From assembly GCA_009840445.1 (NCBI GenBank), contig VXNS01000011.1, positions 1 through 40,081 of the forward strand: a stretch of DNA of 40,081 nt, read 5' to 3'. The notes beneath the pieces are model-generated. The model saw only the letters and a program-made list of their open reading frames with translations, was not told where the DNA came from and ran no database searches. Shown piece by piece: positions 3,106-40,081 of the stretch (positions are counted from its first letter, which is position 1; every line of letters starts with the position of its first letter). The stretch is from Synechococcus sp. SB0662_bin_14 (lineage in GTDB: Bacteria; Cyanobacteriota; Cyanobacteriia; PCC-6307; Cyanobiaceae). A program made the position numbers and the translations under genes.

Positions 3106-3192
3106 GGACCGTGTGGCTGCCTCTACCTCATAGTTATGGCGGCGACGGCAGGGGCGGAACGGCACTGTTGTGGAACTGTTCACAAAGGTGTT

Positions 3193-3289: not shown

Positions 3290-4402
3290 ATGCGTGCCAG
3301 TCAATTCACGGAGAGCCAGAAGGCCCAGATTGTGGAGCAGTATCGCGCTGGGGCCAGCAGCGTGGTGGTGGGCAAGCGTTTTGGCTGTAGCGACAGGACG
3401 GTGATGCGCTTCGTTCGCGCCCGCCTGGGTGCTGCCGAGTTCGAGGCCCTCAAGCAGCAGAACCGCAAGCGACCGGTGCCGGCCCACACCACACCGTCAA
3501 CACCGGCCCACCACTCGGCCGCTCAAAACAAGCCCGCCAGTGGCGGCGCTGGCCAATTCACGGAGAGCCAGAAGGCCCAGATTGTGGAGCAGTATCGTGC
3601 TGGGGCCAGCAGCGTGGTGGTGGGCAAGCGTTTTGGCTGTAGCGACAGGACGGTGATGCGCTTCGTTCGCGCCCGCCTGGGTGCTGCCGAGTTCGAGGCC
3701 CTCAAGCAGCAGAACCGCAAGCGACCGGTGCCGGCCCACAGCGCAGCGGCAGCACCGGACCCGGACGCCACGTCGCGGCACCACCCCTCAGCCGCTCAAA
3801 ACAAGCCCGCTGGTGATGGCGCTGGCCAATTCACGGAGAGCCAGAAGGCCCAGATTGTGGAGCAGTATCGCGCTGGGGCCAGCAGCGTGGTGGTGGGCAA
3901 GCGTTTTGGCTGTAGCGACAGGACGGTGATGCGCCTTGTTCGCGCCCGTCTGGACTCTGCAGAGTTGGCAGTGCTCAAGGAGCACAACCGCAAACGATCA
4001 AACCGGACCCGTGCCACGCCGGCAGTGCGTCACTCCAACGCCGCGGACGCTGGTCAGCGCCGAGAGGCGACTCAGGCCGCCAACCTTGACCTGAATCGGT
4101 TGCCGTCTCCCCTCTATCTCCTGGTGGATCGCAGCGTGGAGCTACAACCCCAGACCCTGGGCAGTCTCCACCACCTGGGTCCCCTGCACACTGACGAGCA
4201 ACAGCGGCAGGGGCTGGTCCTGTTCAGCAATGTTCGTCAGGCGCGGCGTCAGTGCCGCAGGAACCAGCGGATTGTGAAGGTGGCCGACCCCAACCTGCTG
4301 GGCAAGACGGCGCCCCACCTCCTGGCCCAGGGGATCAGTCGTCTGGTGATTGAAGACGCCCTCTATGCCCTGCCCGGCAGCAGCACCCCGGCTCGACCCT
4401 GA
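3290..4402 (+). CDS. Triple helix-turn-helix repeat protein with conserved-looking C-terminal domain
   Basis: The 370-residue protein contains three copies of a 62-residue unit beginning QFTESQKAQIVEQYRAG at residues 5, 89 and 180. Each holds a resolvase/transposase-like HTH (VVGKRFGCSDRTVMR). The units are joined by Pro/Ala/His-rich linkers sharing SAAQNKPA. Units 1 and 2 differ by one base in 186; unit 3 matches unit 1 for its first 108 bases and then diverges. Residues about 262-370 form a separate domain (DLNRLPSPLYLLVDRSVEL to RLVIEDALYALPG) that I cannot name. The ATG at 3290 is preferred because the 40 in-frame codons upstream cover the inverted repeat and look non-coding. DNA binding is inferred from the HTH; the target is unknown. 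No recombinase catalytic domain is present. Confidence 0.8.
   Translation: MRASQFTESQKAQIVEQYRAGASSVVVGKRFGCSDRTVMRFVRARLGAAEFEALKQQNRKRPVPAHTTPSTPAHHSAAQNKPASGGAGQFTESQKAQIVEQYRAGASSVVVGKRFGCSDRTVMRFVRARLGAAEFEALKQQNRKRPVPAHSAAAAPDPDATSRHHPSAAQNKPAGDGAGQFTESQKAQIVEQYRAGASSVVVGKRFGCSDRTVMRLVRARLDSAELAVLKEHNRKRSNRTRATPAVRHSNAADAGQRREATQAANLDLNRLPSPLYLLVDRSVELQPQTLGSLHHLGPLHTDEQQRQGLVLFSNVRQARRQCRRNQRIVKVADPNLLGKTAPHLLAQGISRLVIEDALYALPGSSTPARP
3302..4000 (+). repeat. Three in-frame direct repeats encoding HTH units
   Basis: The copies begin at 3302, 3554 and 3827, spaced 252 and 273 bp (84 and 91 codons), so every copy stays in frame. Copies 1 (3302-3487) and 2 (3554-3739) have a single mismatch, CGC versus CGT in the same Arg codon. 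Copy 3 is identical to copy 1 for 108 bases, then departs. The linkers are related but less similar, which places the strongest homogenisation on the HTH coding part. Confidence 0.95.
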
Positions 4403-6525: not shown

Positions 6526-8235
6526 GTGAACTTCAACACAGCCAACAGCACCCTGCGTCAACTGCTGGCCAACGGCCTGCGCTATCGCGTGCCCATGTTC
6601 CAGCGGGACTATGCCTGGGGACCTGATGAATGGGATGATCTCTGGCAGGATATGACTGCCCTCGTGGATAAAGAAGATGCTGAACCGGCGCATTACATGG
6701 GCTATCTGGTGTTGCAGTCACCCAACAACAGGGAGTTTGACGTTATTGACGGTCAGCAACGGATGACCACCATGAGTGTCCTGATTCTGGCGGCGGTGGC
6801 CCATCTCATGGACTTGTCTATGGCGGAAGGTGCGGACAGCAAGAATCGCCAGCGTGCTGACCAGTTGCGTAACAGTTACATTGGCTACCTGGATCCGGTA
6901 ACCTTGGTTTCCCAATCCAAACTGACCTTGAACAGAAACAATGATCGCTTTTATCAACACTATTTAGTTCCTCTTGAACAGCCCTTACGTAAGCAAAGAC
7001 TGAATGTATCGGAAAATCTTCTCCGCCAGGCATTTTTCTGGTTCAAGGATCACATGAAGAAACAATCGGGCGGTAGCGGGGTTGCGGTAGCGCGCTTTAT
7101 TGATGCCTTGGTCGATAAATTGTTTTTTACAGTAATTACTGTAACCGATGAATTGAACGCTTTCAAAGTCTTTGAGACGCTGAATGCCCGCGGCGTGCGC
7201 CTGTCTGCGACGGACTTGTTGAAAAATTATCTGTTTTCTGTTGTGTCTCGTGACAAGCCCCATGAACAGGATATCAAGGATCTGGAAGATCGTTGGGACG
7301 GTATCGTTGATTTACTGGGCAGCGAGAGATTTCCCGAATTTCTGAGGACGTTCTGGAACAGCCGCAATAAACTGGTGCGTAAGGCAGAGTTGTTCAAGGT
7401 GATTCGCAACGGCATCCGGGACAAAGCGGGGGCCTTTGCGTTGATCCGTCAACTGGACAGAAGCGCACAGGTGTATGTGGCTTTACGCAAACCGGAGCAA
7501 GGCAGTGACTGGACGGCTGAGGAGTGCAAAAGCCTGGGGCAGCTAAGGATGTTTTCGGTGCGCCAGCCCTTGCAATTGCTATTGGCCGTATTCGAACGAC
7601 TTAGGGACAAAGACCGCAGCGGTTTTGAAAAGTTCTTGCGTGCCATAGCAGTTTTATCATTTCGATACAACGTGATCTGTGGACGACAAAGTAAAGAGCA
7701 AGAAGGCATTTACAATCAAATTGCTCAAGATGTTTCATCATCCAAGATAGAGACCATCAATGAGGTGCTGTCAAAGCTGCGTCCAATCTACCCGGATGAC
7801 CGGGAATTCGAGGGGGCATTTGCAGAGAAGACTTTACAGACAACTAGTCCTCGTAACAAGAAAGTGGTACGCTTTATTCTGTTCGCATTAGAAAAGCATG
7901 TCTCAGGTAACGCTTTTGAAATCGAAGATTCACAACATACGATTGAACATGTTTTGCCAGAAAATCCTAGCGATGACTGGTATCAGTTTGACGGACAACA
8001 GCAAGAGGCATTCACTTATCGCTTAGGCAATATGACAATTCTAAGGGCATGTGAGAATCGTGAGCTTGGTAACCTAGGCTATGATAAAAAGCGATTGACT
8101 TATCAGAAAAGTGGTTTTGACGTCACCAAAAATCTGGCAGACCGGTATGACCAATGGACGGTTGAGAAGATCTGTGCCAACCAGAGATGGATGGCCAAAC
8201 AGGCAACGTCAGTCTGGAGAGTGAATTTTCCCTGA
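6526..8235 (+). CDS. GmrSD-like DUF262/DUF1524 protein (probable type IV restriction or defence)
   Basis: A 569-residue protein combining the two halves of GmrSD-type modification-dependent restriction enzymes in one chain. The N-terminal DUF262 part has YRVPMFQRDYAW (residues 20-31) and the diagnostic DGQQR at 75-79, part of a ParB/sulfiredoxin-like NTPase fold. The C-terminal DUF1524 part has the HNH-like IEHVLPE (His475, Pro478) and RLGNMTIL. Family members cut DNA carrying modified, often glucosylated, bases of phages. The start is the GTG at 6526, since TGA at 6502 closes the frame upstream. From about 6900 the gene is clearly AT-richer than its neighbours, suggesting transfer. No partner gene is adjacent. 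Confidence 0.85.
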   Translation: MNFNTANSTLRQLLANGLRYRVPMFQRDYAWGPDEWDDLWQDMTALVDKEDAEPAHYMGYLVLQSPNNREFDVIDGQQRMTTMSVLILAAVAHLMDLSMAEGADSKNRQRADQLRNSYIGYLDPVTLVSQSKLTLNRNNDRFYQHYLVPLEQPLRKQRLNVSENLLRQAFFWFKDHMKKQSGGSGVAVARFIDALVDKLFFTVITVTDELNAFKVFETLNARGVRLSATDLLKNYLFSVVSRDKPHEQDIKDLEDRWDGIVDLLGSERFPEFLRTFWNSRNKLVRKAELFKVIRNGIRDKAGAFALIRQLDRSAQVYVALRKPEQGSDWTAEECKSLGQLRMFSVRQPLQLLLAVFERLRDKDRSGFEKFLRAIAVLSFRYNVICGRQSKEQEGIYNQIAQDVSSSKIETINEVLSKLRPIYPDDREFEGAFAEKTLQTTSPRNKKVVRFILFALEKHVSGNAFEIEDSQHTIEHVLPENPSDDWYQFDGQQQEAFTYRLGNMTILRACENRELGNLGYDKKRLTYQKSGFDVTKNLADRYDQWTVEKICANQRWMAKQATSVWRVNFP

Positions 8236-11138: not shown

Positions 11139-12134
11139 TCAGCGCTGCAAGGAGGCAACAGCGGCCTTGGACTTGACCACCACGCTGTCGGGCAGGGGCA
11201 CGTAGCCGAGGGAGTCGCTAATGGCCTGGGCTTTGTTCGAGAGCATATAGTTGAAGGCCTGCTTCAGGGCGTCCAGCTTGGCGCCGTTGCCGGTCTGGTA
11301 GGCCAGCACCCAGGTGAGGGACACAATGGGGAAGGAATTCTCGCCGGCAGGGTTGGCGTCCGTCCCACGCAACTGATCGTCCAGAACGATCCTGGACAGA
11401 CCCTCAGCGGCAGTGGCGGCGCTGGGCTTCACGTAATTGCCGTCCTTGTTCTGGAGGGCAGCCGTCTGCAGGCCGGAGCGCTGCACGTAGCCGTAGTTCA
11501 CGTAGCCAATGGTGCCCACCTTGTTCCGGATCAGGCCAGCCACGCCGGAGTTGCCCTTACCGCCCACGCCAACGGGCCACTCAACGGTTTTGCCGGCGCC
11601 CACCTTGTCTGTCCATGCCGAGGAAAAAGCCGAGAGGGATTTGGTGAAGCCCGCGGTGGTGCCGGAACCGTCGGAGCGGTGGGCTACGGTAATGCTGCCA
11701 GGGGCACAACCCAGGGCGGACCAGTTGGTGACTCTCCCCATGAAGATACCCACCACCTGGCTCTGGCTGAGTCTGAGGTCGCAACCAGGCTTGTTGTAGG
11801 CCACCGCAATGGCGCCGCCGGTCATGGGGATTTGCACCACACCACGGCGCACCTTAGCCACTTTGGCGTCGTCCATGGCGGAGTCCGAGGCGCCGAAGTC
11901 CACGTCGTTGTTGGTGAACAACTTGACGCCGGTGCCGGAACCCGTGGCTTGGTAGTTGACCTGGGGACCACCGTCAGTAGCCAGATCCTTGAGCCATCGT
12001 TCGTAGATGGGGGCGGGGAACGTGGCGCCAGCACCATTAAGACGGGTCTGTGCCAGAGAAGGCGCAGAAAAAGCAGTCGTAGCAGCGAATAGCCCTGCAC
12101 TGGCGGCAGTAAGGGTCTTTGCGAGGACAGACAC
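11139..12134 (-). CDS. pstS: Periplasmic phosphate-binding protein
   Basis: Captures phosphate in the periplasm and hands it to PstCA. After a signal peptide (LAKTLTAASAGLFAATTAF, cleavage probably after SLA) the mature protein begins with LNGAGATFPAPIYERW. Phosphate-binding blocks are ATGSGTGVK, FGASDSAMDD and HRSDGSGTTAGFTK, all standard PstS. No ATG precedes the signal peptide. There are two in-frame GTG candidates, at 12134 and 12149, each inside one copy of a 15-bp tandem duplication. I give the inner one (331 residues); the outer one adds five residues. It is first in the pst operon. Confidence 0.93.
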   Translation of the reverse strand: MSVLAKTLTAASAGLFAATTAFSAPSLAQTRLNGAGATFPAPIYERWLKDLATDGGPQVNYQATGSGTGVKLFTNNDVDFGASDSAMDDAKVAKVRRGVVQIPMTGGAIAVAYNKPGCDLRLSQSQVVGIFMGRVTNWSALGCAPGSITVAHRSDGSGTTAGFTKSLSAFSSAWTDKVGAGKTVEWPVGVGGKGNSGVAGLIRNKVGTIGYVNYGYVQRSGLQTAALQNKDGNYVKPSAATAAEGLSRIVLDDQLRGTDANPAGENSFPIVSLTWVLAYQTGNGAKLDALKQAFNYMLSNKAQAISDSLGYVPLPDSVVVKSKAAVASLQR

Positions 12135-12152
12135 GGAGAGGACAGACACGGA
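12123..12152 (-). repeat. 15-bp tandem duplication at the pstS start
   Basis: GAGGACAGACACGGA occurs twice in direct succession (12123-12137 and 12138-12152, plus-strand reading). On the coding strand each copy contains GTGTCTGTCCTC, so the gene has two in-frame GTG starts with nearly the same context. The length is a multiple of three, so loss of a copy would keep the frame. Confidence 0.9.
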
Positions 12153-12200
12153 AAGGTTTTTTGGAAGGAGATTTGGAAAAAACGTCTCCTCACAAGGAGA

Positions 12201-38308: not shown

Positions 38309-38317
38309 TGCTATAAT
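38309..38317 (+). promoter_or_regulatory. Extended -10 promoter element
   Basis: TGCTATAAT is a perfect extended -10 (TGnTATAAT). No -35 hexamer is present at the normal distance, as is usual for extended -10 promoters. The predicted transcription start (about 38324) falls inside the ATCGG array, leaving a leader of only about 30 nt before the ATG at 38356. Confidence 0.55.
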
Positions 38318-38350
38318 CGGATCGGATCGGATCGGATCGGATCGGATCGG
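38316..38350 (+). repeat. Pentanucleotide tandem repeat (ATCGG)7
   Basis: Seven perfect copies of ATCGG occupy 35 bp with no interruptions, beginning inside the TATAAT box and ending 5 bp before the ATG of the exported protein. A unit of five is not divisible by three, so a copy-number change would also shift reading frames passing through it. Confidence 0.97.
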
Positions 38351-38355
38351 CGGCC

Positions 38356-40081
38356 ATGAGGTGCTCATCTGGCCGGCTAGCCTCTCCTCCATCCGGGTGT
38401 TCCCCCGTTAGCGGGTATGGCCCGCTCCTCTGGCGGCTCCTCTGCTTGGGAGGTTTCCGACGCACCCCATGTTCTGCGGGGCGTGGTGGGTTTTCCCTTG
38501 GCTGGCTGTTGCTGCTGTTGCTGTCCGTCCTGGGCGCCGCGCCGGATGGTGCCGCCCAGACCCGGACGCTGGTGAAGAACACCAGCCAGGCCGATGCAAC
38601 AGCGGCTTCGCTGTCCAGCAGCGACTTGGCCCAGGCGTTCACCACCGGCACAAACAGGGGAGGCTACATCCTGCGCAGCGTCAACGGGCCGGGCAGCCTG
38701 TCATCTCAGGAGGTTAGTGTCACCATCCGTAGGTCCTCCAACGGCGTTCCGGGAAGAACGGTGGCGATACTGTCATGGGACAACTCGGTGGGGGGCTTAA
38801 CAGCATACCGAGGTTCGGGCGTCCGTCTTGCTTCCAACACCACGTACTTTTTCACCCTGCAAGTACAAACCAACGAATATAATTTGAGACTGAGTCCAAG
38901 TATAAGCGTGAATACCACGGCATCCAACAGTGAGGACAGTGGCGGTGCGGCCGGCTGGAGCATTGCCGACAACAGCATGGCCATGAGCGGCGGCTGGGGG
39001 AGCGGCAACTCTTGGGCGAGCCAGACCAACAAGCTGGAGATCGATCTCAGGGGAGAGCTGATCACCTACAAGCCGCCGGTTCCCCCGGCTCCTTATGTGG
39101 AGAAGGTGAGCTCCGGCAAGAAGACCATGGTCAGCAACTTGGGGCAGTCAGATTTTGGGTATATAGATCTTGACAATGGTCGTAGACATCTCGCCCAGGG
39201 CCTCAGGACCGGGAGCGATGCCGGTGGTTACACCCTGCTCAGCGTCGACGTAGAGTTTGGTACTAGCGATGCTTCGTTTCCGGTCACCGCCACCATCAGG
39301 AGCAGAAACGGTAGTTTACCAGGCGACATCATCGGCACCCTGAAAAACCCCACCTTTGTTACTACGGGTGTGGACCGGGTGTACACTTTTACGACCAAAG
39401 GCATCGCGCTTAAATCAAATACCAATTACTTTGTTGCATTCTCCGTCCCCTCGGATCACGACGCCACAGACTTTCGGACGACGCAGCAGCACGCAGAAGA
39501 TGCCGGCGGCTTGACGGGTTGGAGTATTAGTAACCAACGTTTTTTCAATACGAACTTCTGGAACTTAACTGCGTTTCCTCTAAAGATCCGCATCAACGGC
39601 ATCAGCACCAGTAATCCCGTCGTGACGCCGAGTCATATCTACGAAGGGAATCCCGCTTCCGCCAAGTGTGACATCAACGAGGGGGAGAAGGAGTTGTGGT
39701 TCGAGATGAAGCTGAACAAGGCGGTGCAGCGAAGCGACCAAAGGTTGAGCGTGGGTTACGAGGTGGAGAAGCAGGACCCTGAGGACAACACCAAGTACCA
39801 CAGGGTTAAGGGTGGCGCCTACCAGTTCGGCGTCGGAGCAACAGAGGTGAACGTTAGATTGCCGTCCGAGGACGACGTCCACGAAGCCGACGGCGTCCAT
39901 ACCTACAGGTTGAAGGTGTTGCCCCTGGCCAAGCACTTGCGGGGCGGCCCAGCCACCGTGCCGGGCGATCCCGGATCGGGCTTCGGCAAGTACACCGTGG
40001 GTGATCCCGAATCCGTGGAAATAACAGTGTGCGACAACGATCCGGCGCCCCAATCCAACAGTGAGCCTGAAGGGGACGGCG
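38356..40081 (+). CDS. Large exported repeat protein, 3' end outside window
   Basis: The frame is open from ATG 38356 to the window edge, giving 575 residues. A long N-terminal segment ends in a signal peptide core of six leucines (GWLLLLLLSVLGAAP, residues 49-63), cleavage probably near AAQ-T at 68. Two related domains follow, about residues 69-235 and 256-416, sharing a jelly-roll-like pattern: (L/M)V(K/S)N, AQ..(T/R)TG, GGY.L.SV, NT.YF, then EDSGGAAGWSI or EDAGGLTGWSI. They resemble the 'choice-of-anchor' type surface domains. Residues about 417-575 are a different beta-rich region resembling Calx-beta repeats, ending VEITVCDNDPAP. It is probably a surface or secreted adhesin-like protein. 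GC is lower than in neighbouring genes. Confidence 0.8.
   Translation, partial: MRCSSGRLASPPSGCSPVSGYGPLLWRLLCLGGFRRTPCSAGRGGFSLGWLLLLLLSVLGAAPDGAAQTRTLVKNTSQADATAASLSSSDLAQAFTTGTNRGGYILRSVNGPGSLSSQEVSVTIRRSSNGVPGRTVAILSWDNSVGGLTAYRGSGVRLASNTTYFFTLQVQTNEYNLRLSPSISVNTTASNSEDSGGAAGWSIADNSMAMSGGWGSGNSWASQTNKLEIDLRGELITYKPPVPPAPYVEKVSSGKKTMVSNLGQSDFGYIDLDNGRRHLAQGLRTGSDAGGYTLLSVDVEFGTSDASFPVTATIRSRNGSLPGDIIGTLKNPTFVTTGVDRVYTFTTKGIALKSNTNYFVAFSVPSDHDATDFRTTQQHAEDAGGLTGWSISNQRFFNTNFWNLTAFPLKIRINGISTSNPVVTPSHIYEGNPASAKCDINEGEKELWFEMKLNKAVQRSDQRLSVGYEVEKQDPEDNTKYHRVKGGAYQFGVGATEVNVRLPSEDDVHEADGVHTYRLKVLPLAKHLRGGPATVPGDPGSGFGKYTVGDPESVEITVCDNDPAPQSNSEPEGDG

What the first reader, a model, noticed from the sequence alone, without database searches (positions are those of the whole stretch)
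3290..4402. Triple-HTH gene with nearly identical in-frame repeats
Units 1 and 2 differ by one synonymous base in 186, and unit 3 is identical for 108 bases before diverging, while the linkers differ. This pattern points to recent duplication or continuing gene conversion confined to the HTH. Recombination between copies would yield one-, two- or three-HTH proteins in frame, changing the DNA site recognised. The C-terminal domain is unlike known regulators and may define an undescribed family.
Basis: partly seen in the sequence, partly recalled or inferred. Interest (0 to 1): 0.6.

Follow-up and report, generated by a model that had tools for sequence, protein, structure and literature searches.

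The report
Sponge-symbiont regulator with multiplied DNA-binding domain
A gene carried in single copy by nearly all oxygen-producing cyanobacteria, and probably encoding a DNA-binding protein, has had its DNA-binding part copied two or three times over in sponge-dwelling Synechococcus, with the copies kept alike by gene conversion; this is a clear natural example of a regulator changing its number of DNA-gripping parts, although what it regulates is unknown.

Summary
Observation confirmed. The gene at 3290-4402 (370 aa) holds three in-frame HTH units. Units 1 and 2 differ by one synonymous base in 187; unit 3 is identical to unit 1 for 108 bases, then differs at 22 of 75. The gene is the orthologue of a single-copy HTH / acidic-linker / ~100-aa C-terminal domain (CTD) protein. 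The CTD was found in 324 of 340 Cyanobacteriia genomes and in none of 38 other Cyanobacteriota outside that class. The CTD has no Pfam, PHROG or PDB-sequence match. About 60 orthologues outside the genus each have one HTH; only the Candidatus Synechococcus spongiarum genus has 1, 2 or 3. Comparison with the sister genome G149 shows the copies are mosaic: the 108-bp core clusters by genome, the rest by position. Gene conversion of the core therefore goes beyond recent duplication or selection. Two points need correcting: all units share one recognition helix, so copy number should change valency and spacing rather than specificity; and the CTD is conserved across the class, not peculiar to this gene. 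Copy-number change within a species, and any target, remain unshown. Best functional guess: a multivalent DNA-binding regulator reading direct repeats of one half-site.

The parts
3290..4402 (+). CDS, 370 aa: three HTH units, linkers, C-terminal domain
   Evidence: the ATG aligns with the starts of relatives; CTD dN/dS about 0.10-0.21 within the genus
3302..3488 (+). HTH unit 1 (four-helix homeodomain-like unit)
   Evidence: AF2 of residues 1-66, pLDDT 84
3554..3740 (+). HTH unit 2, 186/187 identical to unit 1
3827..4013 (+). HTH unit 3; first 108 bases identical to unit 1, remainder orthologous to the last unit of G149
3827..3934 (+). 108-bp core of unit 3, inferred gene-conversion tract (same core in unit 1 3302-3409 and unit 2 3554-3661)
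   Evidence: mosaic site pattern, genome- versus position-clustering sites, incongruent trees
3935..4009 (+). unconverted tail of unit 3, 92% identical to G149 unit 2 and 71% to unit 1
3392..3424 (+). recognition helix of unit 1 (same in unit 2 3644-3676 and unit 3 3917-3949); SDRTVMR, against S[PA]NTVSR-type in other cyanobacteria
3489..3553 (+). linker 1 (65 bp)
3741..3826 (+). linker 2 (86 bp)
4014..4081 (+). short linker 3; lacks the acidic DADDF stretch present in G133, G008, G063, G176, G114 and nearly all other Cyanobiaceae sequences read
4082..4381 (+). C-terminal alpha/beta domain, class-wide cyanobacterial family without a Pfam model

Best explanation
The gene is the Candidatus Synechococcus spongiarum orthologue of a single-copy protein typical of oxygenic cyanobacteria (class Cyanobacteriia), built of one N-terminal homeodomain-like HTH, an acidic low-complexity linker and a conserved ~100-aa alpha/beta C-terminal domain. 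In the sponge-symbiont genus the HTH has been multiplied in frame to two or three units (shown). Intragenic gene conversion then keeps the first ~108 bp of the units alike within a genome, while the outer part of each unit and the linkers diverge (shown against G149 by mosaic sites). How it most likely works (inferred): it is a sequence-specific DNA-binding regulator. Each unit carries the same recognition helix and reads the same half-site, so two or three tethered units bind direct repeats with more avidity and longer reach, and the C-terminal domain oligomerises or contacts a partner. Conversion keeps the units' specificity equal, and unequal exchange changes their number.
For: Orthologues: CTD found in 272/300 genomes of the family, 324/340 of the class, nearly always one copy, and 0/38 phylum members outside the class. 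One HTH in all of about 60 non-genus orthologues read. Genus copy numbers 3, 3, 2, 2, at least 2, and 1. Conversion: at sites where unit 1 and G149 unit 2 differ, unit 3 matches its own-genome paralogue at 8/8 sites up to base 63 and the orthologue at 17 of the 18 resolved sites from base 109 on. Three genome-clustering sites are all in the core and 12 position-clustering sites all in the tail. Core and tail trees conflict, with support 0.96 each. Core synonymous differences between units 1 and 3 are 0/23, while G000-G149 core dS is 0.15-0.33 and CTD dS 0.13, so the core is not slow at synonymous sites. Purifying selection on the CTD (dN/dS about 0.1-0.2). Identical recognition helix in 11/11 genus units.
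Against: No binding site, target or phenotype is known. The conversion tract is short, with few informative sites (8 core, 20 tail), so the proof rests mainly on one sister genome. Units 1 and 2 could in part be a very recent duplication. DNA binding is inferred from family and fold only, and the HTH fold matches are weak in score (Z 5-6).
Confidence: 0.62

Rival explanations
1. Recent tandem duplication alone, without gene conversion: units 1 and 2 (and the start of unit 3) are simply young copies.
For: Units 1 and 2 are identical along their whole 187 bp bar one base. G149 has one unit fewer, and in G063 and G176 the copies resemble each other over core and tail, as independent duplications would.
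Against: Unit 3's tail is orthologous to G149's last unit, so units 1 and 3 split before the species did, yet the core is identical and shares G000-only states at offsets 50, 52 and 62. Linkers 1 and 2 differ about as much from each other as from G149's linker.
Confidence: 0.12
2. Purifying selection on the HTH core (protein or DNA level) keeps it identical; no exchange is needed.
For: The core is the DNA-binding part and its protein sequence is strongly conserved; core is more conserved than tail between species too.
Against: Synonymous sites in the core differ between G000 and G149 (dS 0.15-0.33) as much as in the CTD (0.13) or pyrG (0.29), but not between units 1 and 3 (0 of 23). Derived states private to G000 occur in all three units.
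Confidence: 0.05
3. Assembly or binning artefact: copies from different strains or repeat mis-joins in a draft genome.
For: Draft genome of 85 contigs; no reads available. G114's scaffold has a 10-N gap inside a unit, flanked by the same 55 bases on both sides, and four relatives' contigs end at or inside a unit.
Against: Three units anchored by different linkers on one 40-kb contig; independent assemblies give 3 (G063), 2 (G149, G176) and 1 (G133) units. Contig ends at the unit in 4 of 9 relatives are far above chance (P about 8.5e-5), as real near-identical repeats would cause.
Confidence: 0.05
4. A remnant or domesticated transposase (the HTH resembles IS630, IS481 and IS21 transposase N-termini) rather than a regulator.
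For: HTH_Tnp_1 and IS630/IS481 HTH matches.
Against: Only the HTH matches, far below the equivalog cut-offs (30.7 against 100 bits); no catalytic domain is found in the CTD. The gene is single-copy, and in Cyanobiaceae often lies next to rsmI, a cysQ-like phosphatase and pnp.
Confidence: 0.04

Closest known systems
Cbp1 / Cbp2 of Sulfolobales and Desulfurococcales (CRISPR repeat-binding proteins)
   Same: Three (Cbp1) or two (Cbp2) HTH domains in tandem from domain duplication; in Cbp1 the three HTHs line up along one repeat and deleting one weakens binding (PMC10883916). The window protein gives a weak hit to NF040595 (E 4.5e-5).
   Different: Cbp1 is archaeal and its HTHs have diverged roles (HTH3 recruits Cren7). 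Here the units share one recognition helix, there is a separate CTD, and the score is far below the Cbp1 cut-off (23.4 against 140 bits).
The single-HTH orthologue of other Cyanobacteriia (unnamed here)
   Same: Same order HTH, linker, CTD; CTD 40-57% identical outside the genus; in Cyanobiaceae the neighbourhood is often shared.
   Different: One HTH, a long acidic linker with the LAIDDADDF-type stretch in Cyanobiaceae (lost in the window), and a different recognition helix.
HTH_23 / HTH_28 homeodomain-like domains of transposases and invertases (IS630, IstA, Hin)
   Same: Sequence family of the HTH unit; structure similar to the IstA N-terminus and Hin (Z 5.0-5.3).
   Different: No catalytic domain; single-copy, vertically kept gene.
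TTHA0547 (2z0r) and Tic22 (4ev1, 4e6z)
   Same: Best fold matches of the CTD model: Z 7.6, rmsd 2.6 over 80 residues (TTHA0547); Z 4.7-5.3 (Tic22).
   Different: 9-13% identity and Z below 8, so perhaps only a common arrangement; neither has an attached HTH array (own knowledge).

Membership tests
Class-wide cyanobacterial HTH-CTD protein family (this gene's own orthologues) | C-terminal domain homologous along its length | tested here: met
   window CTD E 1.5e-49 to the family profile; 40-57% identity to non-genus members
Class-wide cyanobacterial HTH-CTD protein family (this gene's own orthologues) | exactly one N-terminal HTH (usual state; not needed for orthology) | tested here: not met
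   three units in the window, against one in all of about 60 non-genus members read
Class-wide cyanobacterial HTH-CTD protein family (this gene's own orthologues) | acidic linker with LAIDDADDF-like stretch (usual state in Cyanobiaceae; not needed for orthology) | tested here: not met
   absent in the window, G149 and G188; present in the other complete genus members
HTH_23 / HTH_28 homeodomain-like HTH (Pfam) | score above the gathering cut-off | tested here: met
   67.2 against 24.6 and 61.9 against 25 bits, summed over three units
Cbp1 CRISPR repeat-binding protein | three tandem HTH domains | tested here: met
   PMC10883916
Cbp1 CRISPR repeat-binding protein | NF040595 equivalog cut-off | tested here: not met
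   23.4 against 140 bits
Cbp1 CRISPR repeat-binding protein | binds CRISPR repeats | not testable with these tools
   no binding data
IS630/IS481 transposase | full-length model score | tested here: not met
   30.7 against 100 and 22.6 against 224 bits, HTH only
IS630/IS481 transposase | DDE catalytic domain | tested here: not met
   no Pfam match for the CTD at E up to 0.1 except one chance hit in one of 35 members
TTHA0547 / Tic22 fold | clear structural match of the CTD | tested here: inconclusive
   Z 7.6 and about 5; PDB Foldseek E above 0.02

The most novel reading that the evidence does not exclude
HTH copy number in this regulator is a mutable trait inside sponge-symbiont populations. 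Unequal exchange adds or removes identical units and conversion keeps them equal, so cells differ in the valency with which a regulator typical of oxygenic cyanobacteria grips repeated sites. A one-off change of the recognition helix (S[PA]NTVSR to SDRTVMR) in the symbiont genus would have rewired its targets.
Probability: 0.15. Interest if true: 0.72.

Novelty: new variant of a known kind. Interest (0 to 1): 0.5.

Why it matters
A protein present in nearly every oxygenic cyanobacterium, absent from the non-oxygenic relatives tested, and without a described domain family has in one symbiont lineage multiplied its DNA-binding unit and changed its recognition helix. That gives a natural series (one, two, three identical HTHs on one C-terminal domain) for testing how valency changes regulation, and a clear bacterial case of intragenic gene conversion limited to a DNA-binding core. 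It also points to an uncharacterised class-wide gene that can be knocked out in model strains.

Tried and rejected
Transposase remnant: rejected, no catalytic domain and single-copy class-wide distribution. Longer ORF (GTG at 3170, 410 aa): rejected, orthologues start at the conserved ATG. Mobile or phage origin of the CTD: no match in phage or plasmid records, only weak fold matches to viral proteins. CTD by sequence in PDB, Pfam and PHROGs: nothing. Multi-HTH outside the genus: seven Cyanobiaceae genomes gave extra HTH hits, but each orthologue ORF has one HTH. A shared upstream operator: only the ~40 bp before the ATG is conserved, with no clear repeat matching three units. Papers: none found linking Ca. 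S. spongiarum to an HTH protein, or describing this protein.

Full report
What is there. The ATG at 3290 opens a 370-aa ORF ending at 4402. It contains three HTH units starting at 3302, 3554 and 3827. Units 1 and 2 differ at one synonymous base in 187; unit 3 equals unit 1 for exactly 108 bases and then differs at 22 of 75. The linkers are 65 and 86 bp and differ. Each unit matches homeodomain-like HTH models and the predicted unit is four helices, pLDDT 84.

Which organism and which gene. The window is one contig of a 2.16-Mb draft genome. Its nearest named relatives are Candidatus Synechococcus spongiarum and sponge-derived Synechococcus MAGs. The C-terminal domain is found, nearly always once per genome, in 272 of 300 genomes of the family and 324 of 340 of the class Cyanobacteriia (139 of 144 genera). 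It was in none of 38 phylum members outside that class. It has no match in Pfam, PHROGs or PDB sequences, and full-length single-HTH orthologues match no NCBIfam model above its cut-off. In several Cyanobiaceae the gene lies next to rsmI, a cysQ-like phosphatase and pnp, a neighbourhood partly kept in the window. So the domain is not peculiar to this gene; it belongs to an apparently undescribed family typical of oxygenic cyanobacteria.

Copy number. In about 60 orthologues outside the genus there is exactly one HTH (in one, G305, HTH and CTD lie in different frames). Inside the genus complete copies have three (window, G063), two (G149, G176) and one (G133). G114 has at least two, with a 10-N scaffold gap flanked by an identical 55-base stretch inside a unit. 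In four further genomes (G008, G091, G164, G188) the contig ends at or inside the unit, which by contig-end density has a chance probability of about 8.5e-5. This is what near-identical repeats do to short-read assemblies, and it argues that repeats are common in the genus and are not an artefact of this genome.

Gene conversion. The nearest relative with an intact gene is G149 (pyrG dS 0.29, CTD dS 0.13). The tail of unit 3 is 92% identical to the tail of G149's last unit and 71% to unit 1, whereas its core is 100% identical to unit 1 and 92.6% to G149's last unit. At sites where unit 1 and G149 unit 2 differ, unit 3 follows unit 1 at 8 of 8 sites up to base 63, and follows G149 unit 2 at 17 of the 18 resolved sites from base 109 on. 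Sites grouping units by genome (offsets 29, 50, 52) lie only in the core; the 12 sites grouping by position lie only in the tail. Trees conflict: core unites the three window units, tail unites unit 3 with G149's last unit, support 0.96 each. Orthologous pair G000u3/G149u2 shows no break (p 0.48), while both within-genome pairs do (p 0.0005). Selection alone does not explain this: synonymous sites of the core do differ between species (dS 0.15-0.33) but not between units 1 and 3 (0 of 23). Linkers 1 and 2 have diverged from each other about as much as from G149's linker, so even the unit 1/unit 2 identity is better explained by conversion than by duplication alone, though a young duplication cannot be excluded. 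In G063 and G176 units resemble each other throughout, which fits either independent duplication or conversion.

What changes with copy number. The recognition helix is SDRTVMR in all 11 aligned genus units, and never so in 44 units from other cyanobacteria, where it is mostly of the S[PA]NTVSR or SN[ST]TISR type. Thus the genus as a whole changed its recognition helix, and the copies within a protein do not differ in it. The likely consequence of two or three units is binding of direct repeats of one half-site with higher avidity, not a new specificity. This is inference. A known parallel is archaeal Cbp1/Cbp2, with three and two HTHs (PMC10883916); in Cbp1 they line up along a CRISPR repeat.

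The C-terminal domain. It is under purifying selection (dN/dS about 0.1-0.2). Its AlphaFold2 model (pLDDT 87.6) is an alpha/beta domain most like TTHA0547 (Z 7.6) and then Tic22 (Z about 5), values that may reflect only a common arrangement. A role in oligomerisation or partner binding is a guess. The acidic linker of other members is missing in the window, G149 and G188, so this subclade also altered the joint between the two parts.

Limits. One genome per species: nothing is known of copy number within a population. No reads, no binding data, no expression. The strongest conversion evidence rests on one sister genome. HTH fold matches have Z of 5-6 only, though the sequence match to HTH families is clear.

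Verdict. Observation confirmed; gene conversion well supported; function inferred. A new variant (multiplied, homogenised HTH) of a known kind (HTH protein), sitting on a class-wide C-terminal domain that appears undescribed.

Noticed in passing
window 38316-38350: A perfect seven-copy ATCGG repeat ends 5 bp before an ATG at 38356; such a repeat in a leader could vary in length and change expression.
   Followed up: no
window 6526-8232: A GmrSD-type restriction enzyme gene (both GmrSD_N and GmrSD_C domains) lies between a cysQ-like phosphatase and the pst phosphate-uptake genes.
   Followed up: partly
L096 2116-4025 (and similar loci of non-Cyanobiaceae): Outside Cyanobiaceae the HTH-CTD gene often follows a DUF7469 (Npun_F0813 family) gene and a predicted membrane protein without a Pfam match in the same direction, a possible functional link.
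   Followed up: partly
window 12123-12156: A 15-bp unit repeated 2.3 times at the start of the putative pstS coding region.
   Followed up: no
L100 4300-5380 (G305): HTH and C-terminal domain of the orthologue lie in different reading frames, either a frameshift error or a broken gene.
   Followed up: no
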